This document shows, piece by piece, positions 228 through 26,694 of a DNA stretch of 26,859 nucleotides. Position numbers and translations under genes: made by a program. The DNA lies in the NCBI GenBank assembly GCA_014730295.1, contig WJIN01000257.1, positions 1 through 26,859 on the forward strand, given 5' to 3'. The notes under the pieces were generated by a model that worked only from the letters and a program-made list of their open reading frames with translations, searched no databases and had not been told where the DNA came from. Each line of letters begins with the position of its first letter. Position 1 is the stretch's first letter. The DNA comes from Promethearchaeota archaeon (GTDB lineage: Archaea; Asgardarchaeota; Lokiarchaeia; Sigynarchaeales; SOKP01).

Positions 228-746
228 TTATCGCAATTCTCCTTTTTTATCTCGAAATAAATTAAGTAATCGAGAAAAGAATCCGCTGTCTTTTTCAATC
301 TTTTGATAGTACTCATCTATTTGCTTCTTCAACAATTTTTTAAATTTATCAAATATATCCAAATTAACGCAGGTCTTATCAAAATCTTCTAACTCATTTT
401 TAAACATTTCATAGAATAAATCTAAAGCCTCTTCGGCTTCTACAGCGATTTTTACTTTTTTCATGTTCTTATCCATCAGAGCTATTAAAATAAGCCCATG
501 TTTTTTTACGATTAAAGTTTCCACCTTACCGCCTTTGATTAAAGTCTCGTTTAGTGAGGCTAAATTTTCTTCTGAATATGTGCTTAGCGCACTGAAAAAG
601 GGTGCAATCAAATGTTCATTAATTTTTTCGTCTTTCTCATCGACTTTCACGGAGACTAGGGGAACTCCATTTAAAGTTGCAATGATTACTCCTAAAACTT
701 TTTTTTCAGGTATATTCTGTTCTAATTTTTCGTTTGTTTCGGTCAT
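228..746 (-). CDS. Roadblock/LC7- or longin-like small protein
   Basis: This is a 172-residue protein with no signal peptide or membrane segment. Residues 16-110 alternate short hydrophobic strands and helices (VLGVIIATLNGVPLVSV, then a helix with SALSTYSEE, then VETLIVKKHGLILIALMD, then an acidic helix). That order is typical of Roadblock/LC7 and longin-like domains, which in Asgard archaea are numerous and thought to act as regulators or partners of small GTPases. Residues 115-172 form a charged, probably helical tail. No catalytic motif is visible and no GTPase gene lies in the window, so the partner is unknown. The ATG at 746 lies about 25 nt downstream of a TATA-like box (771-779) with no Shine-Dalgarno sequence, which fits a leaderless or near-leaderless mRNA. 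The fold assignment rests on the sequence pattern only. Confidence 0.6.
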   Translation of the reverse strand: MTETNEKLEQNIPEKKVLGVIIATLNGVPLVSVKVDEKDEKINEHLIAPFFSALSTYSEENLASLNETLIKGGKVETLIVKKHGLILIALMDKNMKKVKIAVEAEEALDLFYEMFKNELEDFDKTCVNLDIFDKFKKLLKKQIDEYYQKIEKDSGFFSRLLNLFRDKKGELR

Positions 747-6423: not shown

Positions 6424-8589
6424 ATGGTGACAAATATCGATGAGTTTCCGGAGTATTTCGAAGATGAGTTTATAAAGGACAATAAGATCCACTTTCGTAA
6501 ATATCAAAATAATATTGTAAAAAGATGCAGCTATCGGAATTCTCTGGTAGTACTTCCCACAGGGTTGGGAAAAACGATTATTGGAGTATTGCTCATAGCA
6601 GACAGATTTCAAAAATATCCAGAACACGGGAAAATACTAGTATTAGCTCCAACACGACCATTAGTGGCACAACATCTTGATTCGTGTGAGAAATTTATTG
6701 ATATAGATGAAAACAAAATAAATGCCTTTACGGGCAAGATCTCACCCGAAAAAAGGCTGCTGTTATTCAATAAATCGCAAATTATTATATCAACACCTCA
6801 AGTAATTAAAAATGATGTGATGAGGGGGCGCTATGATTTAGGCTGTGTATCGTTGATAATTTTTGATGAGGCACACCGTACTAAGGGAAATTACGCCTAT
6901 AATTTTCTCTCTAAGGAGTATATGAAATCGTGCTCCGATCCGTTAATTTTAGGACTTACCGCTTCTCCCGGGAAGAATTACGAGACTATCCAGCAACTTT
7001 GTGATAATTTATTTATCGAGAATGTGATCTTTCGAACGTATGAAGATGAGGATGTGAGCGAATATATACAAGATATCGATATCTTTCTTGAACGGGTGGA
7101 TCTCCCAATTAAAATGTTAGAAATAAGCAAGATAGTCGAAAGTCTTTTTGAGAGATTTTTACGATTTTTCATCGAACGAGACTTAATTCAACCAAATAAA
7201 CGATATTATTCTAAATTAGATTTTTTAAGGATCGCCCAAGATTTAACCATTTCTTTGAAATACGGGGATTTAATTGAAGAAAGCAGGTATGACGGAAGTT
7301 TTAGGGAATTGGCTTTCACATCCCCCAAAATTATAGATATCGTGAGAGAAAATCGGTTAAACATTCATTCGATCTTTTCCTATTGCTCCAGTTGTATCTC
7401 CTTACTCCATGCAAAAGAATTATTGGAAACTCAAGATATTCGATTATTTCTAAATTTTTTCGAACGATTAAAATACAAATCTGACCGAGATAATCTATCT
7501 GCTAAACGCATAACTAATTCGGACCACTTTAGATTGATTGATTCCTTAGTAGAACACGGTTCCTTAGACGAGTTATCTCATCCAAAAATAGATAAGGTTT
7601 TAACTCTTCTTCATGAGGAGATTGATGAATATAATAATGGGAGAATACTTATTTTCACTCAATATAGAGAAATGGCGGACTTTTTAAAGGATAAAATCAA
7701 TTTGGTGTTTGAAGGGAAACTCTCCGCAGAAAAATTCATTGGGCAAACATCTAAAATGGATGATAAAGGTTTTACTCAAACAAAACAGATTGAAATTTTA
7801 CAAAAGTTTAGGAGAGGTGAAATTAATGTGCTAACAGCAACCAGCGTAGCAGAAGAGGGGTTAGATGTTCCCAATGTGGATGCTATAATTTTTTATGAGC
7901 CTGTTGCATCCGAGATCCGCCTAATTCAGAGGAGAGGGAGAACAGGACGGCATTCGAGTGGAAGATGTTATATTTTAATTGCAAATGATACCTTAGATGT
8001 TCCATTTTTTAGAGTTTCTAATCGTAAAGAAGAGACAATGAACTCGGTGCTATGTGGAGAGGGACATAATCTCGATTTAACCGAAAATATCAGTCGCTCA
8101 AATATCAATTTTAGTTCACTACCCAGATATCTTTCTGATCTACAAATTATCAAAAATTTCAGAAATCGACGAGAACGAGAAAAAGAACTTTTGGCAAATC
8201 GATCTATTGAGGAAATTTGCGAAGACTTTGATAAATTCTCTCAATCTGAACAGTATAATGAGTTAAAAAATTACGGCGTGAGCTTTTTTTCTGATGTCGC
8301 CAATATTAATAAAACTAAAATAAAACAAAGAGTCTTAAAAATGAAAGGAAAAATACCAAAAAAAGAAAACAAAAAAAGAAAACAATATATTAACAACAAC
8401 GTCAAAACCTTAATTCGATTGGTTGAAACCTATAATAAAAATAATCGGATTGGAGTAGAAAAATTACAAGAATTAGCCGAATTTGAAGAGATTGAGGGGA
8501 AAAAATTTTATATTCATCTCAATAGAGCATGTTATTTAGGGTATCTTAAAAAAGGAAATGATTTCATTACCTTACTTAAAGAGCTTTAA
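6424..8589 (+). CDS. Hef/FANCM-like DEAH helicase lacking the nuclease domain
   Basis: This 721-residue superfamily-2 helicase belongs to the Hef/FANCM/Mph1 branch. Motif I is LPTGLGKT (44-51), motif II FDEAH (147-151), motif III TAS (179-181), motif V ATSVAEEGLDVP (472-483) and motif VI QRRGRTGR (502-509). Residues 200-385 form the helical insertion between the two RecA lobes that is typical of Hef and helps bind forked DNA. FIGQTSKMDDKGFTQ (438-452) is also a Hef hallmark. Archaeal Hef normally ends in an XPF/ERCC4 nuclease with a GDxxxxERK centre; none is present. Residues 570-721 are instead Lys-rich (KKENKKRKQ) with a small helical, perhaps winged-helix, end. The role is probably remodelling of stalled forks or branched DNA. 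The gene ends 10 bp from the convergent coiled-coil gene. Confidence 0.88.
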   Translation: MVTNIDEFPEYFEDEFIKDNKIHFRKYQNNIVKRCSYRNSLVVLPTGLGKTIIGVLLIADRFQKYPEHGKILVLAPTRPLVAQHLDSCEKFIDIDENKINAFTGKISPEKRLLLFNKSQIIISTPQVIKNDVMRGRYDLGCVSLIIFDEAHRTKGNYAYNFLSKEYMKSCSDPLILGLTASPGKNYETIQQLCDNLFIENVIFRTYEDEDVSEYIQDIDIFLERVDLPIKMLEISKIVESLFERFLRFFIERDLIQPNKRYYSKLDFLRIAQDLTISLKYGDLIEESRYDGSFRELAFTSPKIIDIVRENRLNIHSIFSYCSSCISLLHAKELLETQDIRLFLNFFERLKYKSDRDNLSAKRITNSDHFRLIDSLVEHGSLDELSHPKIDKVLTLLHEEIDEYNNGRILIFTQYREMADFLKDKINLVFEGKLSAEKFIGQTSKMDDKGFTQTKQIEILQKFRRGEINVLTATSVAEEGLDVPNVDAIIFYEPVASEIRLIQRRGRTGRHSSGRCYILIANDTLDVPFFRVSNRKEETMNSVLCGEGHNLDLTENISRSNINFSSLPRYLSDLQIIKNFRNRREREKELLANRSIEEICEDFDKFSQSEQYNELKNYGVSFFSDVANINKTKIKQRVLKMKGKIPKKENKKRKQYINNNVKTLIRLVETYNKNNRIGVEKLQELAEFEEIEGKKFYIHLNRACYLGYLKKGNDFITLLKEL

Positions 8590-8599
8590 TTACCCCCTA

Positions 8600-11500
8600 T
8601 CACATTTCGATATCTTCCTCTTCTTGTCGTTTTTTAAACAGATAATACATCAATCCCAAAATTATAAATATGGGGATTATGAGGACGAAGAAGTTAAATC
8701 CACTTAATAACAGCAGATAATAGCTAAATGTGAGCATGGAAGCAAAAAATGCAATAATAGAACTATAATGACTAGTAAAATTCTTTAATCGATTCAAAAA
8801 TTGATAAAGTTTATAATTCATAGATTTTATGACTTGAAGCTCTTTTTCATCTATATTTTCTAACACTTCAGGGTCTTCGTAATAAATACTGATTCTTGGA
8901 TCATATTTTCCTTTTAGTTCCCCAGCACTTATTAAGGTAAGCATATGGTCTTGAATATTTTGTTTTTTGATCTTCAATTCTTTATGCAAAAATGAGATTG
9001 TCAGAAAGCGATTTGAAACAGCTTCAATTGCCATTTCAATGAAGTTTTTGAGAATCAAACGCTCAAGAGATTTTACTTTTTCGGTTAAAATCGAATCATA
9101 ATCATCCAGATATTTTTTAAAATCATCTAAAATGTATTTATTCTTTGTCTCGAAATCATTGGCTTTCCTGCCAAATTCTCTAACCATTCCTAAAACATTG
9201 TTGTTTATTTCCTTAACATTTTCTTCGATTTTCTCTACTCTCTTATCTATTCTAGAATATGCCCGTTTAAATTCTTTAATTTCAATATAGTCTTCTACTC
9301 GAGATTGGAGCATACCCAATAATTGACTCAACTTAATTTTACAATTGCTAATATATTGCATTAACTGACTCCGAAAGAGTTCATTTCGTTTGATCAGAAT
9401 TTTGTGATTAATGTTTTTAATTGTTTTATTGTAGTTTTCTAAGAATTTGTTTTTCTTTTTAACAAAATATTCTCGTAATTCTGGGGTTAGCTTTCTCATT
9501 TCTTCCTTTTCTTCCAATTCCTTTTGCAATTCCTCTTCAATATCATTCTGAACATCCGAGATATATTCCTCAAATTCCTCTTTTTTCCGATCAAAGTGTT
9601 CCCTTATTCGTTCATAGGATTCTGTATCATCTAGTAATTCATTGAGTTTTGATAATTCTTGTTCAATTTCGACAGCTAAGGAGTTATAATCCTTTTCAAT
9701 AGTATTCTGGAGTTTTCTAAATATTTCCAAACTAATTTTTATCTTTTTCAGTGCCGCTTTGGATTCCTGGATAATATTATTAAAGTATTCTTCAGTCTCC
9801 TTGTAGTCTTTTCTACTATTTAGATCGATATTTAATTCTTTTATTTTTTGTTCAAAACGCTCTCGAAGTAAGATCTCAAAATTGTCTAATTCTTCCAAGC
9901 GGCTAGTTAATTCTACAATATTAACACCAAGTGTTCTATTTTTTATACATGAATCATAGAGACTTAATGTTTTGCTAATTGTTTCATTATTGTACCGAAT
10001 TATTTTATTGTTGATAAAACTCCTGAGTTCTTTGTTTTTATAATATGAATCGGTATAGATGAGTATCTTTTTCTCGCTTTCATGAAGTTCTCCATTAAAT
10101 TTTGAGAATTCAATCATCTCTTTAATTCGAGTTTTTATCTCTTTACATTTGATATTTAATTTTTTTGAGAGATATTTTACATCAATTTGATTAGTACCTG
10201 TTTTTTCTGAGAGATAGTGGATATTTACAGCAACAATTTTATTGGTGTATTCTTCTTTAAGGTTTTTAATCTCATTCCTAAGATATTCATTGAATTTCTC
10301 CCATTGCATTATGCTTAATTTCGATTTTTCTTCAAAATTTTCTATGAGATCATCATTCTCCTCATAAAGGTCTGTGTAATCTTCATTTAAATCTTCGAAA
10401 AATTCTAAAATCTTTTCAAATTCTTCATTCAAATCCTTAATACTAAGTTTTTGAAGATATTCCTTCTTGTCGAGCTTTTGCTTGTAATCGACGAGCTTCT
10501 TTCTGCATTCTTGGATATTATCTGATATGAGCGTATCAAATTTCTCGATTTTTGCTCGATTTCTCTCTTTAATGACTTTCTCTTTTAAATCATGGTTTTT
10601 TTCAGCAACAATCTCTATGATATTTTCCTCTAATTTATCCAGTCCATCTTGAAGATATTGAAATAAAACATATAGTTTCTGTTTTTCTTTTATTTTCTTC
10701 TTTACTTTTTTATGGAGTTTTTTAATCTCATCAAGTTTTTTATCTAAAATAATATCCAATTCATCTTTTATCAAATCAAACGCAGCTTTAAAATCGCTTT
10801 CATTTACTTTAAGTTTAGCTTTCTTATCGATGGCGGCAATTTGCTCTTTTAAATCATCACGCTGATCTTGGATGTTTCCCATTGTAGCTTTGAAAAAGTC
10901 CAAACCTTCAGAATAATATCGAAATATTTTCTCTAATTCTTCTTTTATGCCAACCCAGTAAGCGATGAGTTGTTTATGCTTTTTTATTAACTTTTCTTCT
11001 TTAGACGTTATTTTTTGAGAAATATTGTAAACAACCTTATCAAACTTTTCCATATTAGAGGTAATTTTATTGAATTCATCGACAATCAAAGTGAAATCTT
11101 CATGACTATATCCATCCTCAAGCGTTTCACTCATGAATTTTCTAAAGTGGTTTATTTCCTTATTAAAATAACTATCTAAATTCTTAAGACGATTATCAAG
11201 CTCCTCTAAAATATTATCGAATTTTCTAATTTCCTCCCTTTCAGAAATTTTCTCTTTTAGTTGAGCATTAATTTCATTTAATTTCTGACTTAAAATGGAA
11301 TATAGATGATTCCATCTATTGATTTCTGTACCCAAGGTGGCTTTCAAGTTAAGATAATACAAATCTTCATTAAAGGAATTTTCTATATTTTCATTTAGAA
11401 AATCGGCTTCCATAAGTGCATTTCTAACAATAAAACTCAACCGTTCCTTAGCTATTTCTATTTCATTGATATACAAATAACTCTCAATTTCTTCCCTTAT

Positions 11501-13030
11501 CTGTTTAGTGATATTCTTTAATTTTAAAGTCATATTATAGATATCATTTTTAATTTCCCGTAATATCTTTTTCTCCTCAAACAGGCGCTCGCTGTTTATT
11601 TTTGTGTCAGATACAATAATATTTTCTAAGAAAAAATCCAAGTAAAAATAATATTTAGTGAAGAAGAGCATCTTTTTTTTTGTTTTGACCTGTCCATGGA
11701 AAAAATGTTGTGATTTCATATCATCTATTAAATTCTTGAACTCACCAATCTTAATTTGAGTGTTGGGATACTTTGTATTGAATTTATCCATGATTTCAGA
11801 TAACGAAATAACACTTTTATTTGAGAGCTGTTCATAAAGCTCTGAGGCCAAAATCTTTTCGCTGGGAGTTAAATTCCGTAAAAAGTTTTTAAATTCTACC
11901 TTATTATTCAGAATTTTAAGATTGAACGTATAATTCAAATTAATATAAGAGATTATTTCTTCTTCCACATTACTAAGTCCAAATAAGCTTTTTAATTGTT
12001 TTACTTCTATATAACCATTCTTTTCAATTTCTTTAAATAATGCTCTTTCTATTTCTTCGATAAATTTGTTCCATATAATTGATAAAATGATGATCAATTT
12101 AGAAATTTCAATGAGAGAGTTCAATTCCCATGTTGATTCATTAACGAGTACTTGGTTAAGTTTTAAATTTATAAAAGAATAGATTCCTGAAGGATTATAA
12201 TCTAAAAGCCAAGAATAGTTTTCTAAGGTATAACTTACCCAGAATGTCGTATTAATATTTCCTTTCTTTTCTTTGAAGCTATACCCTCCATCTTCTTGTT
12301 GGTATTCATGCAAGAATTGAATATATTCCTCCTTTACCCGAAGTTCTAAATCTAGAACCTTTTGACATAATAATTTAAACACTATATCAGGCTCTTCTTT
12401 TAGATCATCTAGGTATCCGTTAAATTTTGATTTATGATTTCTTACGTCGACACCTAACAATAGTAATAGTTCCAAAACGAAATATAGTGTTCTTGATGGT
12501 GAAGTACGTTTACATATCTCACAATTTTTATCTAAACAATGAATGAATTCATCATCTTTATCATGAGCGTTAATAAATTCCTTTAATTCTGTTAAAACTA
12601 CGCTCTCTCCCCTTGATTTAAGATAGATGCCAAGGTTTTCCATTATCTTCAAACTTGATAATGCATAATAAGTTGACCATATATCTGGTTTCTTCTGTTG
12701 AGAAAAAGGTGAATTGATAAAACCTAACATTCCGTCTTTTTCAATCTCACATTTCTCAATATAATTTACAATATGTTCTTTTATCTCATCAGCTAGTTCT
12801 TCTCTGAGGTACTTATTAAGTAGCAGAAACCAAAAAATGTGTCTGAGGGACACATCTTTAAAATCAAAAATATCTTTCTTATAGAAATCTAGAAATTGAA
12901 TTATTTTATCGTATTGGCTGAAGTAGAATGAGCCGATACCTTGCTTTTCAATTTGAACAAATGATTTGAATGGTTCTTTTTTAAAGACGGTAATGTAAGG
13001 ATACGCGCTATCCTTGGTCGTGAGGGTCAT
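8600..13030 (-). CDS. giant tail-anchored coiled-coil protein with alpha-toroid-like head
   Basis: The protein has 1476 residues and I know no exact family for it. Residues 95-290 contain two repeats resembling the alpha-toroid of prenyltransferases and terpenoid cyclases: LGFINSPFSQQKKPDIWST followed by a YYALSSLKIM helix, and EDGGYSF followed by TTFWVSYTLENY. A CxxxxCxxC cluster (C165, C170, C173) lies between them. Winged-helix-like segments occur at about 325-385, 405-465, 930-995 and 1335-1390. Residues 485-925 and 1000-1330 are almost pure charged coiled coil. Two hydrophobic helices at about 1424-1442 and 1446-1465, followed by the KKRQEEEDIEM tail, form a C-terminal membrane hairpin, so nearly all of the protein should face the cytoplasm. 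A role as membrane tether or scaffold is an inference from architecture. No toroid catalytic residues can be assigned. The winged-helix regulator gene lies 98 bp upstream on the same strand. Confidence 0.8.
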   Translation of the reverse strand: MTLTTKDSAYPYITVFKKEPFKSFVQIEKQGIGSFYFSQYDKIIQFLDFYKKDIFDFKDVSLRHIFWFLLLNKYLREELADEIKEHIVNYIEKCEIEKDGMLGFINSPFSQQKKPDIWSTYYALSSLKIMENLGIYLKSRGESVVLTELKEFINAHDKDDEFIHCLDKNCEICKRTSPSRTLYFVLELLLLLGVDVRNHKSKFNGYLDDLKEEPDIVFKLLCQKVLDLELRVKEEYIQFLHEYQQEDGGYSFKEKKGNINTTFWVSYTLENYSWLLDYNPSGIYSFINLKLNQVLVNESTWELNSLIEISKLIIILSIIWNKFIEEIERALFKEIEKNGYIEVKQLKSLFGLSNVEEEIISYINLNYTFNLKILNNKVEFKNFLRNLTPSEKILASELYEQLSNKSVISLSEIMDKFNTKYPNTQIKIGEFKNLIDDMKSQHFFHGQVKTKKKMLFFTKYYFYLDFFLENIIVSDTKINSERLFEEKKILREIKNDIYNMTLKLKNITKQIREEIESYLYINEIEIAKERLSFIVRNALMEADFLNENIENSFNEDLYYLNLKATLGTEINRWNHLYSILSQKLNEINAQLKEKISEREEIRKFDNILEELDNRLKNLDSYFNKEINHFRKFMSETLEDGYSHEDFTLIVDEFNKITSNMEKFDKVVYNISQKITSKEEKLIKKHKQLIAYWVGIKEELEKIFRYYSEGLDFFKATMGNIQDQRDDLKEQIAAIDKKAKLKVNESDFKAAFDLIKDELDIILDKKLDEIKKLHKKVKKKIKEKQKLYVLFQYLQDGLDKLEENIIEIVAEKNHDLKEKVIKERNRAKIEKFDTLISDNIQECRKKLVDYKQKLDKKEYLQKLSIKDLNEEFEKILEFFEDLNEDYTDLYEENDDLIENFEEKSKLSIMQWEKFNEYLRNEIKNLKEEYTNKIVAVNIHYLSEKTGTNQIDVKYLSKKLNIKCKEIKTRIKEMIEFSKFNGELHESEKKILIYTDSYYKNKELRSFINNKIIRYNNETISKTLSLYDSCIKNRTLGVNIVELTSRLEELDNFEILLRERFEQKIKELNIDLNSRKDYKETEEYFNNIIQESKAALKKIKISLEIFRKLQNTIEKDYNSLAVEIEQELSKLNELLDDTESYERIREHFDRKKEEFEEYISDVQNDIEEELQKELEEKEEMRKLTPELREYFVKKKNKFLENYNKTIKNINHKILIKRNELFRSQLMQYISNCKIKLSQLLGMLQSRVEDYIEIKEFKRAYSRIDKRVEKIEENVKEINNNVLGMVREFGRKANDFETKNKYILDDFKKYLDDYDSILTEKVKSLERLILKNFIEMAIEAVSNRFLTISFLHKELKIKKQNIQDHMLTLISAGELKGKYDPRISIYYEDPEVLENIDEKELQVIKSMNYKLYQFLNRLKNFTSHYSSIIAFFASMLTFSYYLLLLSGFNFFVLIIPIFIILGLMYYLFKKRQEEEDIEM

Positions 13031-13128: not shown

Positions 13129-13770
13129 TTAATCTACAGTAATAGAAATATCTACATAGGATTCTTCCTTTTCATGAGAGATATTTATCTTTTCTACATT
13201 ACAGTTTATATTCCGGTTAAATAAGTCCGAGAATTGTTTTTCAATGATACCTGCTATGATGTAGAAATGGTATATAAATTCTTCGGAGTCTCTAATAAAT
13301 TCTGAATTTGTAAACCTATATACTGCTTTTTTACCCGAATTCTGAATATTGGGTTCCGAGATTTTAATATTCGGTTGCATTAAATCAAAGGAAGGATAAA
13401 ATTTCCTGAATGCCTCAAAATAGAGTTCTATAATTGGGGTCCCTCTCATTCCTTTTAATTGCTTCTTAGATTTTTCGCTTTGATCGAAATTAATATATTT
13501 TACGCTGTCTCTTCCAATTTGTTTTAATTTTTCTTTGTTATTGGAATAGTGTTTTTTCATACCCGCAATTATTGCCTTATAATAAGAAAGAGCGATGCGT
13601 TTCGGAAAAAATGCTTGTTTTTTACTGAAGTATAGATTATATGCTCCTACTTTTTTTTTGTAAATCTCATCATTATCTTCTAAGATTGAAATATATTTTG
13701 ACACGGTATTTCTTGAAAATCCCGTTCCTTCGGCGATATCGGTCTTAGTTAAACCGCTGGGATTATTCAT
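13129..13770 (-). CDS. winged-helix regulator with V4R-like C-terminal domain
   Basis: From the ATG at 13770 this is 213 residues. The N-terminus is a winged helix (LTKTDIAEGTGFSRNTVSKY recognition region, residues 7-26, wing to about residue 50). Residues 55-213 could be a ligand-binding domain. Its end (AGIIEKQFSDLFNRNINC followed by a beta hairpin) recalls the V4R/Bet3-like fold used by archaeal sensors, a weak resemblance. The start is doubtful: the frame stays open upstream to 13842 and encodes KKEILEYLMNNPSG, which would be the missing first helix of the winged helix, yet contains no ATG, GTG or TTG. An AAGGAG lies 15 nt before the ATG, a longer than usual spacing. The gene lies just upstream of the giant coiled-coil gene on the same strand and could regulate it. 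Confidence 0.7.
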   Translation of the reverse strand: MNNPSGLTKTDIAEGTGFSRNTVSKYISILEDNDEIYKKKVGAYNLYFSKKQAFFPKRIALSYYKAIIAGMKKHYSNNKEKLKQIGRDSVKYINFDQSEKSKKQLKGMRGTPIIELYFEAFRKFYPSFDLMQPNIKISEPNIQNSGKKAVYRFTNSEFIRDSEEFIYHFYIIAGIIEKQFSDLFNRNINCNVEKINISHEKEESYVDISITVD

Positions 13771-13859
13771 TAAGTATTCAAGTATCTCCTTTTTATAATC
13801 GGTGCCGTGCTTTTTATTATTAATTTTTATTACACCCGATAGTTAAAACGCAATAATAT

Positions 13860-13868
13860 GTTTATATC
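13860..13868 (-). promoter_or_regulatory. TATA box of the winged-helix regulator gene
   Basis: The minus strand reads GATATAAAC. Transcription would start near 13838, inside the open frame upstream of the only ATG, so the translated start may lie before 13770. Confidence 0.4.
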
Positions 13869-13972
13869 CGAATTTTGTTAGAAATTGATGATCTCAACTT
13901 GTTTAAGATCACGTATTCTCTATATTATCTTAATTGCCATAAAGGTTAAAAAACTTTTTTTAATTTTAGACT

Positions 13973-13989
13973 GAGAGTCTTTTACTCTC
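13973..13989. repeat. inverted repeat GAGAGT-ctttt-ACTCTC
   Basis: Perfect 6-bp arms lie in the 315-bp divergent gap (13771-14085) between the winged-helix regulator and the broken MFS gene. An operator for the divergent regulator is possible. Apart from promoters I see nothing else in that gap. Confidence 0.35.
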
Positions 13990-14054
13990 TTATCAAAGAT
14001 GTTAAAATCATTCATTCGTAAATTAAATACAAATTGAGTTAGATAAAGAAATAC

Positions 14055-14063
14055 TATTATATA
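14055..14063 (+). promoter_or_regulatory. TATA box of the broken MFS gene
   Basis: TATTATATA is centred 27 nt before the ATG at 14086, so the promoter of the pseudogene still looks intact. Confidence 0.4.
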
Positions 14064-14190
14064 CTTTAAGAAGGAAATAAAATATATGAAACAAAGGAAT
14101 AGGGATAGAACTAAAAGATCGAAATCTTATCTTATTTATCTAATCATCGTGCTAATGTTTTGTGAGATATTGGATACTTACACTACCAAT

Positions 14191-14282
14191 TATCCTAACG
14201 TGATACCTTCGAAATTTCTATTTTCTCCAAGTTCATTATCCTAACGTGATACCTTCGAAATTTCTATTTTCTCCAAGTTCAT
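14191..14282 (+). repeat. 46-bp tandem direct duplication
   Basis: Two identical 46-bp copies, each beginning TTATCCTAACGTGATACC and ending TCCAAGTTCA, lie back to back (about 14191-14236 and 14237-14282), followed by a partial TTATC. The first copy is in frame with the transporter fragment; the second brings the TAA stop at 14242-14244. Confidence 0.9.
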
Positions 14283-14445
14283 TATCAAGTCATTAAAGTC
14301 TATTTAAATACGTCTCTTTCCCTTTACAATATATAGAAAAAAATGGATATCTTCAAAATAAAAAAGAATAGATGGAAGATTTATTGAACTAAAAATCTGT
14401 TAGATAAAGATTTAAGTAACTTTTCATTTCGAAGTTATCACGTTA
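14242..14445. repeat. 204-bp segment bounded by 20-bp inverted repeats
   Basis: The left end TAACGTGATACCTTCGAAAT (second tandem copy) matches the reverse complement of the right end ATTTCGAAGTTATCACGTTA (14426-14445) with one mismatch. Together they bracket the non-coding insert in the transporter gene. This looks like a short non-autonomous element or a fold-back rearrangement. No transposase is encoded inside and no target-site duplication is evident. Confidence 0.55.
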
Positions 14446-15537
14446 GGGGCTCTGCTCCCTCTTATTAATCTTTTCGACTGGTATTATTCAATACACGATA
14501 TATCTTTTTCTGTTGTATTTATTCTTTAGCTCTGATATTTGGGTTATTTATATAAATGAAGAAAGTCCTTCAGATAAACGGGGTCGACTCACTAACTTAG
14601 TACTTATCGGAGGTGTGACAGGTTCTATATTATTACCCATTTTCAGATCTATTTTTATTACAGATACTTCTCCAGCAGGCGCATGGCGGGCAATGCCTAT
14701 ATTTTCAGTGATATTAGGTATTCCTCTAAGTATTATCATTTTTTTCACCTTAAAAGAAACCTCTAAATATGAGGAATATAAAATTGAAGAAATTACTATT
14801 GAAACTAATATTATAAAAAATAACCTTAAAACCATATTTTCTTCAGAAAGAAGAAAAGAATTCATAGCACTGATGTTAATTACTTTTCTGGTAGGTTTTA
14901 ATTACATATTTGTATCTATTGGCGAGCAATATATCAATAGCAGCCCAAATTTGACAGAGGGCGATATTAACATTATCGTGTTGGTAATGAGTCTCGCAGT
15001 TATTCTGGGGTATCTATTCACTGGGATATTTGCGGATAAAGTGGGTAGAAAACCGTTATTTTATATATATTCTATCCTATTTATTATATCAATTCTCACA
15101 GTGATTTTCGGAAGTCGTTTTGAGAATTTAGCTATAATTCCCGTAGCTATAGGCGCTGCTCTTGCTAATATCTCTTATTGGGGTATTGGAGTTGCGATTA
15201 GGTTGGTTGTGGTTGAGGTGGTGCCTACTGATGTTAGAGGAACGGGAAGTGGACTTAAATCTTTGGTAAGTGCATTTGGAATCACATTTGGTTTAGTGTT
15301 AAGTAGTGTTATAACCTATTTTTTCTCGTTAGAACTGTCTTTCATCGTGCTGAGTTTGCTATTAATTTTAAATCTTCCATTGATTTATAAATTCTTGAAA
15401 GAAACGAAGGGCGTCGAATTGAGTGAGATAAAATAGGAATCATATGTATGTTAACAGTACAAAAGCTGTTGTATTTTGATGACGTTTAAAGAGGATAAAT
15501 CATTTTGGTAAAATATTAAAAAATTGAGAAGATATAT

Positions 15538-23120: not shown

Positions 23121-23148
23121 ATAAAACAAACTCGAATTTTATTATTCG
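23121..23148 (-). terminator. hairpin and T-rich tract after the activase gene
   Basis: On the minus strand CGAAT-6nt-ATTCG (23133-23148) overlaps the stop codon and is followed by TTTGTTTTAT, a plausible end for the glycyl radical enzyme operon. Confidence 0.35.
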
Positions 23149-24050
23149 TTCACGACGACCTCAAATGATTGGCTTTTCAGCAGTTTCACGATCGTTTCTA
23201 TCTCATCCTCTCTTAATTCACCCATATCCCGATATTCATCCGCCTTCCCAATTTTTTCATATTTCGTCTTAGCCATACGATTATAGGGCATCAAATGAAC
23301 TAGACCAGTAAAACCGATACCTTTCAAAAAGTCAATTATTCCTTGAATCGTCTTTTGATCGGTATTGACATCGGGGATTAAGGGAATTCGACATATAATT
23401 CTCTCTGGACCCACCAGTTTATATATTTGATGAAAGTTATATAAAATATTCTCATTACTTACTCCGGTATAATATTCGTGTAATTCGGGATCTATGTGCT
23501 TAATATCGAATAAGAATAGATCAACAACAGAAACAAATTTTTCCACCATTTCTGGATTAAAACATCCACACGTTTCGATGGCAGTATGAATTCCCTTCTT
23601 TTTTATATTCTTAAGTAAATTAATAAGAAATTCAGTTTGCATTGTAGGCTCTCCCCCTGAAACGGTTATCCCTCCACCTGAGTTATCATAAAAAGGCTTA
23701 TCTCGGATAACAATCTCAATTATGTCTTTAATACTCTTTTCTTCCCCAATAATTTGCACTACATTTTCAGGGCAGATTTCAACACATTTTCCACATTTTT
23801 TACATATCTTCTTTTCTCTAATTATTCGATCATCTGAAAGAGTTATTGCATTTTCAGGGCAGATTTTAACACATTTTCCACATAATACACATTTTTCTTG
23901 AAAATAAGCCATTTGAGGCTCTAATTGTTGCGATTCTGGATTTTGACACCAAAAACAACTAAGAGGACAGCCTTTCAAGAAAATTAATGTTCGAATGCCT
24001 GGACCATCATATATGGCATATTGCTGGATATCAAAAATAATTCCTTTCAT
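23142..24050 (-). CDS. glycyl radical enzyme activase (radical SAM)
   Basis: Counting from the ATG at 24050 the protein has 302 residues. GIIFDIQQYAIYDGPGIRT leads into the radical-SAM cluster C28-x3-C32-x2-C35 (CPLSCFWC). It is followed by two ferredoxin-type 4Fe-4S motifs (CVLCGKCVKICP and CKKCGKCVEICP), the insertion typical of activases for the non-PFL glycyl radical enzymes, and by SGGEPTMQ, the SAM-binding GGE region. The enzyme abstracts a hydrogen from the glycine of its partner to install the radical. The frame extends 23 codons further upstream, but that stretch overlaps the partner gene in another frame and lacks family features. The ATG at 24050 lies four nt after the partner's stop, so translation is probably coupled. 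All cluster ligands are present. Confidence 0.93.
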   Translation of the reverse strand: MKGIIFDIQQYAIYDGPGIRTLIFLKGCPLSCFWCQNPESQQLEPQMAYFQEKCVLCGKCVKICPENAITLSDDRIIREKKICKKCGKCVEICPENVVQIIGEEKSIKDIIEIVIRDKPFYDNSGGGITVSGGEPTMQTEFLINLLKNIKKKGIHTAIETCGCFNPEMVEKFVSVVDLFLFDIKHIDPELHEYYTGVSNENILYNFHQIYKLVGPERIICRIPLIPDVNTDQKTIQGIIDFLKGIGFTGLVHLMPYNRMAKTKYEKIGKADEYRDMGELREDEIETIVKLLKSQSFEVVVNE

Positions 24051-24054
24051 ATTT

Positions 24055-26694
24055 CTATATTTTGGAATGTTCAGTTCTGGAGATAATCTCTTCTTGGACT
24101 TCTCTTCCCAGATCAACAAAATATGCAGAATATCCCCCTACTTTCACGATAATATTTCGAAATTCATCAGGAGTTTCTTGGGCTGCCCGTAACACCTCGG
24201 TTGACACTACTGTTGGTTGTAACTGCTCCCCACCCAAATCAAAATAGGTCTTAACTAAGGAGATCCATTTTCTTCTTGCATCGTCAGTCTTTCCAATACT
24301 TGAAGGATGCATACGAATATTCACTGCACATCCCATTACATGTTGAAAATCAAGAGCCGAGACCGATCGGAGGACTCCTGTTGGACCATTTGACTCCACA
24401 TTATATGGATTACAACTTGCCGCGAATGGTTTTCCTCCCAGTCGCCCATCTGCGGTCGCAATAGATATCCGACCGTCGTATGTATGTGTCGTCATACTAT
24501 TAATAAAAGGAGCATAAAATCCATCTTTATACGTTCTATATTTATATGTTTCTTCGAATATATGTGAAGTTACTCTTCTGGCCAATTCATCGCATTCGGG
24601 ATTTCCATTACCCCATTTCCCTTCAACATTCATAATCATCTCATGGATGTGTTCATATTCACCACTGTAATTATGATCAATTGCCTCAAGTAATTCTTTA
24701 AATGTGAGACTTTTTCTCTCAAAAATCAGTTTCTTAATAACATATAAAGAATCAACCGTATTCGCAATACTGGTCATAAAGAGGATTCCTTCGCAATCAT
24801 ATATGGCCCCCCCTTGAGTAATATCCTTTTTATTTTCAATACATCCTTGCATAAAAGCTGAAATAAATGGAGCGGGCAAATATTCTGCATATAATTTATC
24901 TCTTATTTTTGAAGTTTGTACGATTTTTTTAATCATATAATCGGCTTGAGTGAAAAATGCTTCCAAAAATTCATCAAAGCTATTAAATTCATCAGGATCT
25001 CCCGTTTTTAGTCCAGCATTTTTAATTGTACCAACTAAAGTTTTCGCATTTCCGTTTCGGAGGGCCAAATCCAGCGTTCTACATAATAATATGGAAGAAA
25101 AACCCTCTCCTCCTGTTTTCCCAGGTGCGCACATATCAACACAGCCTGTAATCGCATACGTTCGAGCATCTTCTTGGGTAAATCCTCTATTTAGTAATGC
25201 TTTCATAGCGATTTTGTCATTCATCAAAGAAACACTTGAAACCCCATGATAATATAAATCCGCTACTTTCAACAATAATGTTTCTGGGGTCTTATCGTGG
25301 ACTCTCACCACAAAATTAAGCGATGCTTTTGATTTGTCTGCGGCATCTAACATGACATAAGTTAAATCATTCGTTGCATCGTTTCCTTCCTCATCCAAAC
25401 CCCCCATCGTGATGGGTTCTGACCCTTCATAACGCTGGCTGAAATCACTGGATGCATTGGAATAGGGTCTCATGTTATGACTCATTATTTTTAAGAAGAG
25501 CTCCTCAAGCAATTCGCCAGCCTCCTCCTCTGTGATATCATTGTTTTGTAAATCTCTTTTGTAATAGGGATAAAAGATTTGGTCTAAACGACCTGGAGCA
25601 TGGACATTAAATGGTATGGCTAATTCTACTGCGGTTTTTACTATCCAGTATGATTGAACCGCTTCTCGAAAGGATTCAGCGGGATAGAGTGGGACTTTTT
25701 TACAAATGGTAAACATATCTTTGAAAATTTCTTTTCTTTCGATATCATCAGTAGAGTTAAGTTCTTGTTCAATCCAATCTGCTAGTCTTTCTGAATAAAT
25801 TATAACTCCTTCAAGAGAAATCTTTATTGATTCGAAAAAATTTTCCTCTTCTTGAGTAAGATTTCCCTTTTCTAATATATCTGCGACCTCTTTTTTCATC
25901 TGCAGTAATCCTTTTTTTATCGGTGTTTCATGATCCAATATTAAATGTCCCTGCCAGACACCTAATGCTGCTCCTATTGCGGTCACCATATCATTTTTCG
26001 CAGTTCCTCTGGGAAGCGACCTTATAAAATCTCCGAATTCTCCGTCATATATTTGCTCTTCAAGAAATTTTTGTTCAAGCTTCTCGGCTATTGTCTTTCC
26101 CTCCCAATAGGGGAGTAATTCTCTTAAAAGTTCTTTTTTATCGTCCTCGTTAATTTGATATGGATTAATATCCCTTTTATCTAAAGTCTCAGTCCCTAAA
26201 GAGGGCATCGCGACCCCAATTTCCTTACTTTCCTTAAGACTGTTCAGCAAACCTGAAATTCCGTCCCTTTTAATCTTTTTTATCGCGAATTTTAAATTTC
26301 CTTTCACACCAAAAAACCACATAGATCGTTTTTTAAGCTCAATTTCGAATACCTTATTAAAGAGACCGCGTTCTATATCTATTGGGATGCCTAAAAAGTT
26401 TTCTGTCCATGTACCCGCAATTCTGTCGTCGGGGTCGATATTAAAACGCATATTTTCAAATACATTTTTCATCGCCAAGGCGATTCTAACATTTCTCGGC
26501 AGATCGTGATTCTCAGTTTCTTGCCATTTTTCAGTATAATACTTGGCTCTTTCGATTGATATAAAGGGAATATCATCAAGAAATCTTTTCCGTATTCTTT
26601 TAATTCGTTCACTAGCAGTATCTTCCATATTAAAATTTTTAATCCCGCATGTATTTGAAATTATTCCTGGAGATTTCCCTTCTGTATCACTCAT
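24055..26694 (-). CDS. glycyl radical enzyme of unassigned specificity (PFL-like)
   Basis: The 879-residue protein is a full-length PFL-like enzyme. The radical site is Gly854 in VGGYSAYFVDL near the C-terminus, and the thiyl cysteine is Cys518 in ITGCVDMCAPGKTGGEG. Dehydratases and C-N, C-S or C-O lyases of the family carry G-C-V-E-P at this loop; here Glu is Asp and Pro-Gln is Met-Cys, adding a second cysteine (522). SIERAKYYTEKW (46-57) and NFVVRVHDKTP (460-470) are ordinary family segments. The start at 26694 gives a 22-residue extension before MEDTASERIKRIR; Met23 (26628) is a reasonable alternative. The activase follows four nt after the stop. No microcompartment shell genes or aldehyde dehydrogenase are adjacent in the window, so the substrate is unknown. 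The enzyme implies strictly anaerobic metabolism. Confidence 0.92.
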   Translation of the reverse strand: MSDTEGKSPGIISNTCGIKNFNMEDTASERIKRIRKRFLDDIPFISIERAKYYTEKWQETENHDLPRNVRIALAMKNVFENMRFNIDPDDRIAGTWTENFLGIPIDIERGLFNKVFEIELKKRSMWFFGVKGNLKFAIKKIKRDGISGLLNSLKESKEIGVAMPSLGTETLDKRDINPYQINEDDKKELLRELLPYWEGKTIAEKLEQKFLEEQIYDGEFGDFIRSLPRGTAKNDMVTAIGAALGVWQGHLILDHETPIKKGLLQMKKEVADILEKGNLTQEEENFFESIKISLEGVIIYSERLADWIEQELNSTDDIERKEIFKDMFTICKKVPLYPAESFREAVQSYWIVKTAVELAIPFNVHAPGRLDQIFYPYYKRDLQNNDITEEEAGELLEELFLKIMSHNMRPYSNASSDFSQRYEGSEPITMGGLDEEGNDATNDLTYVMLDAADKSKASLNFVVRVHDKTPETLLLKVADLYYHGVSSVSLMNDKIAMKALLNRGFTQEDARTYAITGCVDMCAPGKTGGEGFSSILLCRTLDLALRNGNAKTLVGTIKNAGLKTGDPDEFNSFDEFLEAFFTQADYMIKKIVQTSKIRDKLYAEYLPAPFISAFMQGCIENKKDITQGGAIYDCEGILFMTSIANTVDSLYVIKKLIFERKSLTFKELLEAIDHNYSGEYEHIHEMIMNVEGKWGNGNPECDELARRVTSHIFEETYKYRTYKDGFYAPFINSMTTHTYDGRISIATADGRLGGKPFAASCNPYNVESNGPTGVLRSVSALDFQHVMGCAVNIRMHPSSIGKTDDARRKWISLVKTYFDLGGEQLQPTVVSTEVLRAAQETPDEFRNIIVKVGGYSAYFVDLGREVQEEIISRTEHSKI

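What the first reader, a model, noticed from the sequence alone, without database searches (positions are those of the whole stretch)
8600..13030. Giant tail-anchored coiled-coil protein with a toroid-like head
Seen: 1476 residues; two prenyltransferase/terpene-cyclase-like helical repeats and a Cys cluster near the N-terminus; about 850 residues of charged coiled coil; and a two-helix hydrophobic hairpin with a short basic-acidic tail at the C-terminus. Inference: a long rod anchored in the membrane by its C-terminus, with a globular head reaching into the cytoplasm. This is the geometry of eukaryotic golgin-type tethers and would be notable in an archaeon with Asgard traits. I do not recognise a described family.
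Basis: partly seen in the sequence, partly recalled or inferred. Interest (0 to 1): 0.75.

Follow-up and report, generated by a model that had tools for sequence, protein, structure and literature searches.

The report
Membrane-anchored rod with prenyltransferase-like head
A large protein found in many Lokiarchaeota-like archaea carries a ring-shaped head resembling the enzyme subunit that adds lipid anchors to eukaryotic trafficking proteins, but apparently without that enzyme's metal site, on a long jointed rod with a likely membrane anchor, so it is probably an undescribed scaffold or tether rather than an enzyme.

The parts
8600..13030 (-). whole ORF, 1476 aa
   Evidence: 135 full-length sequences, itself included, align nearly gapless
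12962..13012 (-). residues 7-23, conserved N-terminal peptide (consensus KxAYPYITxFKKEPFKS), predicted disordered; likely a short binding motif
   Evidence: conservation; pLDDT block means 34 and 51 over residues 1-20; binding role is inference
12065..12925 (-). residues 36-322, alpha-alpha toroid like protein prenyltransferase beta subunits
12749..12751 (-). C94, invariant in 135 of 135 Loki-type sequences, 10 of 16 in the diverse set; putative metal ligand
   Evidence: metal binding is inference
12512..12541 (-). residues 164-173, HCx4Cx2C knuckle inserted in the toroid; putative metal site
   Evidence: H164, C165, C170 135 of 135, C173 96 of 135; H, C, C and C kept in 11 of 11 heads of alignment A5; in A4 H164 16 of 16, C165 and C170 15 of 16
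11876..12055 (-). residues 326-385, winged-helix-like unit 1
   Evidence: secondary structure of two AF2 models; no Pfam match in P0001
11609..11866 (-). residues 389-474, winged-helix-like unit 2
   Evidence: AF2; weak profile similarity to winged helix 3; PCI above cut-off at residues 355-414 of the relative P0164
10610..11593 (-). residues 480-807, helical rod 1: helices of 41, 30, 73, 31, 65, 34 and 24 residues (plus a 4-residue one); contains the most conserved stretch 526-550
   Evidence: AF2 secondary structure; conservation; similar to rod 2
10055..10258 (-). residues 925-992, PCI-type winged helix 3
   Evidence: best PCI stretch at this place in P0005 and P0015, whole-protein score above cut-off; fold match to COP9, TREX-2 and DDRGK1 winged helices
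9020..10051 (-). residues 994-1337, helical rod 2, three spectrin-like bundles in the model
8870..9058 (-). residues 1325-1387, PCI-type winged helix 4 (overlaps the last helix of rod 2)
   Evidence: Pfam PCI 19.3 bits at 1313-1377, below the cut-off of 22; above cut-off with best stretch here in P0033 and P0040, L033, and L034, L035 (near-copies); profile match to winged helix 3
8630..8764 (-). residues 1423-1467, two-helix hydrophobic hairpin, putative membrane anchor
   Evidence: hydropathy; hydrophobic C-terminal segment in 134 of 135; helices in AF2 at pLDDT block means 47-72
8603..8629 (-). residues 1468-1476, end of the tail, acidic here after a KKR patch; mean net charge of the last 15 residues is +2.7 over the 135, so the tail is probably cytosolic
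   Evidence: topology is inference

Best explanation
A membrane-anchored cytosolic scaffold or tether. Supported by computation: an N-terminal toroid of the protein-prenyltransferase-beta fold, with no Cys/His where that enzyme holds zinc and with its own Cys/His cluster; two winged-helix-like units; two similar helical rods, each followed by a winged helix that looks PCI-type; and a C-terminal hydrophobic hairpin. Inferred: the hairpin sits in the cell membrane with both ends in the cytosol; the rods hold the head off the membrane (six spectrin-sized repeats would span roughly 30 nm; repeat length recalled); the PCI-type units bind partners or other copies of the protein, as PCI domains do in the proteasome lid, COP9 and eIF3; and the head is a binding module that captures a cytosolic ligand (a peptide, a small GTPase or an isoprenoid) rather than an enzyme.
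Against: No experiment and no tested partner. Length and membrane separation are not measured: the 1200-residue model has pTM 0.34 and Foldseek gives it no match at E up to 0.001, so a folded-back shape is open. The hairpin is modelled at low confidence. In a set chosen for diversity, not for PCI, Pfam finds PCI at E up to 0.001 in only 6 of 33 members, P0001 not among them. With Loki sequences alone the long-segment duplication is not beyond controls (38.3 against up to 38.6), and with the diverse alignment the long segment aligns in a shifted register (about 610-900 with 1001-1294) while rod against rod aligns about 492-807 with 1001-1314, so how the rods arose is unsettled. Pfam finds no toroid in L033, L034 or L035. 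Paralogs keep head and rods without the anchor. Gene neighbours point to no single pathway.
Confidence: 0.5

Rival explanations
1. Membrane-bound enzyme: the toroid still does isoprenoid or protein-modifying chemistry, using the relocated C94/H164/C165/C170 cluster (with D116) as its metal site.
For: D116 is present in 16 of 16 diverse sequences and 132 of 135 Loki-type ones (6 sequences are in both sets), 10 of 11 in A5 (L036 lacks it); the Cys/His cluster is invariant in the 135; the fold is that of enzymes.
Against: The usual C-terminal Cys/His zinc positions are empty; L033 has lost most of the knuckle yet keeps the rest of the protein; an HCx4Cx2C knuckle looks structural.
Confidence: 0.15
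2. Chromosome-to-membrane anchor: the winged helices bind DNA and the hairpin holds the nucleoid to the membrane.
For: Four winged-helix-like units; the relative L040 matches a DNA-binding HTH family at the third (HTH_24, E 4.9e-7, 29.7 bits over cut-off 21.9); winged helix 2 has net charge +7 or more in 12 of 16 diverse sequences.
Against: Winged helix 2 is only +1 in P0001; winged helices 1, 3 and 4 average -2.6, +2.0 and +0.1; best fold matches of units 3 and 4 include protein-binding PCI types; it does not explain the toroid.
Confidence: 0.12
3. Relative or forerunner of the UFL1/DDRGK1 ligase scaffold, whose origin has been placed in Asgard archaea.
Against: No DDRGK or UFL1 Pfam family appears at E up to 1 for P0001 or six relatives, while PCI does; COP9 and proteasome PCI units match equally well.
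Confidence: 0.08
4. Internal scaffold of the cell envelope or cytoskeleton, spectrin-like, that shapes the cell or its protrusions and has nothing to do with GTPases or trafficking.
Confidence: 0.15

Closest known systems
Protein prenyltransferase beta subunits (RabGGTase beta, GGTase-I beta, FTase beta)
   Same: Complete alpha-alpha toroid; best fold match. The profile of 11 family heads matches RabGGTase beta at E 5.8e-14, GGTase-I beta at 3.4e-7 and FTase beta at 0.0076.
   Different: No Cys/His in the C-terminal zinc region; a Cys/His knuckle elsewhere; fused to rods and a membrane hairpin. P0001 alone finds no PDB chain, the Loki-only profile reaches RabGGTase beta only at E 0.031, and a stand-alone Asgard toroid matches it better (4.4e-21), so the RabGGTase link is general for Asgard toroids.
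PCI-domain subunits (26S lid, COP9 signalosome, eIF3, TREX-2)
   Same: PCI-type winged helices at two places, Pfam PF01399 above cut-off in some relatives; fold matches.
   Different: Pfam sees PCI in only 6 of 33 Loki members; two units in one anchored chain; the helical parts before them are long rods.
DDRGK1 / UFL1
   Same: PCI-like winged helices, helical parts and membrane anchoring (DDRGK1 anchor recalled).
   Different: No family match by Pfam; anchor at the C-terminus; toroid head.
Spectrin, plectin and alpha-actinin rods
   Different: No sequence match; winged helices in the rod.
Golgins and other coiled-coil tethers
   Same: Long helical protein, C-terminal membrane anchor, distal head (golgin features recalled).
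   Different: Modelled as bundles broken by folded domains, not a continuous parallel coiled coil; no known partner.

Membership tests
Protein prenyltransferase beta subunit | alpha-alpha toroid fold | tested here: met
Protein prenyltransferase beta subunit | sequence family match | tested here: met
   Pfam Prenyltrans (a wider superfamily) 27.8 bits over cut-off 26.5; head profile to RabGGTase beta E 5.8e-14. P0001 alone: no PDB hit at 0.01
Protein prenyltransferase beta subunit | catalytic zinc ligands Asp, Cys, His in the C-terminal half of the toroid (identity recalled) | tested here: not met
   No Cys at 223-841 and no His at 242-441 in P0001; no Cys/His column over 20% at 224-330 in 135 sequences except 37% His at 241
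Protein prenyltransferase beta subunit | alpha subunit partner and transfer activity | not testable with these tools
   -
PCI domain | PCI family profile match | tested here: inconclusive
   P0001 19.3 bits, below cut-off 22; over cut-off in 10 of 24 relatives scanned singly, four of them pre-picked; 6 of 33 Loki members at E up to 0.001
PCI domain | winged-helix fold preceded by helical repeats | tested here: inconclusive
Golgin-type tether | long parallel dimeric coiled coil | tested here: inconclusive
   Monomer model shows bundles broken by winged helices; oligomers not modelled
Golgin-type tether | binding of small GTPases or vesicles | not testable with these tools
   -
UFL1/DDRGK1 | family profile match | tested here: not met
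   No such Pfam family up to E 1 in P0001 and six relatives
UFL1/DDRGK1 | winged-helix fold like DDRGK1 | tested here: inconclusive
Spectrin repeat | Pfam Spectrin match | tested here: not met
   Absent from the Pfam scans
Spectrin repeat | three-helix repeats joined by continuous helices | tested here: inconclusive
SMC-like ATPase | Walker A and signature motifs | tested here: not met
   Neither pattern found in P0001

The most novel reading that the evidence does not exclude
A pre-eukaryotic tether in which a catalytically dead prenyltransferase-type toroid, held on a PCI/spectrin-like rod at the membrane, captures small GTPases or their lipids: a membrane-recruitment device older than Rab prenylation, from whose fold family the eukaryotic lipidation enzyme was later drawn.
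Probability: 0.1. Interest if true: 0.92.

Novelty: new variant of a known kind. Interest (0 to 1): 0.6.

Why it matters
Asgard archaea have many Rab-like GTPases, but two papers report that those they examined lack prenylatable C-terminal cysteines; one found no RabGGTase homologue by BLAST, the other only insignificant BLAST hits, though it did find archaeal proteins of the beta-subunit fold (PMC10933270 and PMC4915359, passages). How such GTPases would reach the membrane is open. A widespread, probably membrane-anchored Lokiarchaeal protein with a toroid of the prenyltransferase fold is a concrete candidate to test. Even without GTPases, it would be a large, length-constrained, undescribed scaffold combining a toroid, PCI-like units, rods and a membrane anchor in a prokaryote.

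Tried and rejected
SMC-like protein: no Walker A or signature pattern. Canonical prenyltransferase: zinc region empty. A special RabGGTase tie: rejected as specific evidence after the control; L040's head alone also hits squalene-cyclase-like chains after RabGGTase beta (8.8e-5 against 2.8e-9), and Foldseek's fifth hit is a diterpene cyclase. DDRGK1 membership: only weak signals. Operon logic: in one Loki locus (L059) the neighbours are an FAD-linked oxidase, a CCG Fe-S protein, a C13 peptidase (Gpi8-like reading recalled) and a small protein with a C-terminal hydrophobic stretch and a sub-threshold Ig match; their clusters occur in 17, 21, 11 and 8 of 42 loci and a convergent helicase in 25 of 42 (L010 and L053 overlap, L001 is the BC3 locus). 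None of those four clusters occurs in the window. VIA-align lists do not exclude unlisted folds. The "longin-like" reading of the swapped C-terminal domain (L043, P0171) is from memory and sequence look; Pfam found there only a weak PCI end. An ATG17-like match in 1 of 33 members was taken as helical-bundle noise. No atomic coordinates were available, so the geometry of the Cys/His cluster was not checked.

Counts and dropped rows: the 135 are the sequences over 1380 aa among P0001-P0153 (153), P0001 included; 18 shorter ones were dropped. The tree used the first 560 residues of 33 sequences; partial proteins P0155, P0158, P0166 and P0170 were left out, as were loci repeating included ones; L036 holds masked stretches. 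L044's genome match runs a little past its stop, but four other members of the anchorless clade end alike. 71 of 227 is my count: 90 at 1e-6 less 19 weaker than 1e-40, which I did not examine. Literature searches: listings read by title and start of abstract; one search listed 15 of 136.
Full report
What was checked. The ORF at 8600-13030 on the minus strand encodes 1476 residues from an ATG, with no stop inside. Its one relative found in genome contigs is a Lokiarchaeota genome (isolate BC3, 93% identical over the whole length; only exact short patterns were scanned). Searching with the head alone gave 181 proteins at E up to 0.001, of which 120 were listed; with residues 1300-1476 alone, 86. 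Of those 86, 53 are among the 120 listed. Of the 153 proteins held from both, 135 (P0001 included) are longer than 1380 residues. These align almost without gaps, length 5th-95th percentile 1460-1489. A passive spacer would not be expected to keep its length so strictly.

Is the head an enzyme? In prenyltransferases the zinc ligands Asp, Cys and His lie in the last third of the beta subunit (recalled). P0001 has no Cys between 223 and 841 and no His between 242 and 441, and in 135 sequences no Cys or His column over residues 224-330 exceeds 20% except position 241 (His, 37%). The usual site is therefore absent whatever the exact register. Instead C94, H164, C165 and C170 are present in 135 of 135, and C173 in 96 of 135 with Asp in 32. 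Among 16 diverse sequences (6 shared with the 135) H164 is present in 16, C165 and C170 in 15, C173 in 13 and C94 in 10. D116 is present in 16 of these 16, in 132 of the 135, and in 10 of 11 heads of A5. A four-ligand metal knuckle is the simplest reading; I could not inspect coordinates.

Anchor. Hydropathy gives two adjacent segments at 1423-1467; 134 of 135 sequences have a hydrophobic segment in the last 120 residues, and the last 15 residues carry +2.7 net charge on average. Helices there are predicted at pLDDT block means 47-72. By the positive-inside rule (recalled) both ends are probably cytosolic.

Distribution and variants. With P0001, 75 of 225 genomes of the phylum match at E up to 0.001. 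With the head profile 90 of 227 match at 1e-6, of which 71 are stronger than 1e-40 (my count). One genome without a head match, G123, has a C-terminal piece directly after a run of 100 unknown bases and beside the same helicase neighbour. Distant relatives at 17-24% identity align over most of the length and end in a hydrophobic segment. Among 11 scanned, 7 pass Pfam's toroid cut-off, L041 is just below, and L033, L034 and L035 show no Pfam toroid, though the head profile, which includes L034, finds the genomes of L033 and L035 at 1e-42 and 1.8e-96. Two side branches differ: one (P0163, P0164, P0165, P0167, P0168) has no hydrophobic tail, and one (L043, P0171) ends in another domain, similar to the C-terminal part of a 1429-aa protein encoded near the family member in L040. 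On a tree of 33 sequences these are single events, with a warning there that long branches meet.

Literature. One paper could not find RabGGTase subunits by BLAST and saw no terminal cysteines on GTPases of strain MK-D1 (PMC10933270, passages). An earlier one reported archaeal proteins with the prenyltransferase-beta fold, without evidence of activity (PMC4915359, passages). An ESCRT survey mentions PCI units in archaeal proteins; the 12 of 21 passages I saw do not describe this protein (PMC10936438). UFL1 and DDRGK1 are reported to originate in Asgard archaea (PMC10183829, passages). Searches for Asgard with coiled-coil, prenyltransferase, prenylation, PCI, spectrin, RabGGTase, winged helix or tether listed no description of it by title or start of abstract; preprints and most subscription journals are not held.

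Verdict. I judge the anatomy about 80% likely to be right and the scaffold or tether function about 50%.

Noticed in passing
window 228-746 (-): 172-aa protein with a very weak match to a roadblock-like MAPKK1-interacting family (E 0.093, below cut-off); possibly a roadblock or longin-type GTPase platform.
   Followed up: partly
window 6424-8589 (+): DEAD/ResIII helicase (Hef/FANCM-like reading recalled), convergent with the finding's gene with 10 bases between them; the same neighbour cluster is found in 25 of 42 compared loci.
   Followed up: partly
window 13129-13770 (-): 213-aa protein with an N-terminal helix-turn-helix, sub-threshold in Pfam, upstream of and co-directional with the finding's gene.
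   Followed up: no
window 14513-15436 (+): MFS transporter fragment of 307 aa; by look no N-terminal half in the 730 bases before it, which hold stops in all three plus-strand frames: possibly a decayed gene.
   Followed up: partly
window 13780-14640: Short direct repeats are visible in the translated stretch (the string RDTFEISIFSKFI recurs in two frames).
   Followed up: no
window 24055-26694 and 23142-24119 (-): Glycyl-radical enzyme of the pyruvate formate lyase kind next to a radical-SAM activase-like ORF (by sequence look).
   Followed up: partly
L059 4908-6401; same cluster in 11 of 42 loci: Peptidase C13 protein with an N-terminal hydrophobic stretch (by look) near the family member; resembles the GPI transamidase catalytic subunit (recalled).
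   Followed up: partly
G083:C5 402661-403533 (L072): Stand-alone 313-aa Asgard toroid that matches RabGGTase beta at E 4.4e-21, the strongest such match seen here, without a DxC motif.
   Followed up: partly
L043 residues about 1140-1318; P0171: Membrane anchor replaced by an alpha/beta-looking domain similar to the C-terminal end of a 1429-aa ORF in L040 (E 8.5e-15).
   Followed up: partly
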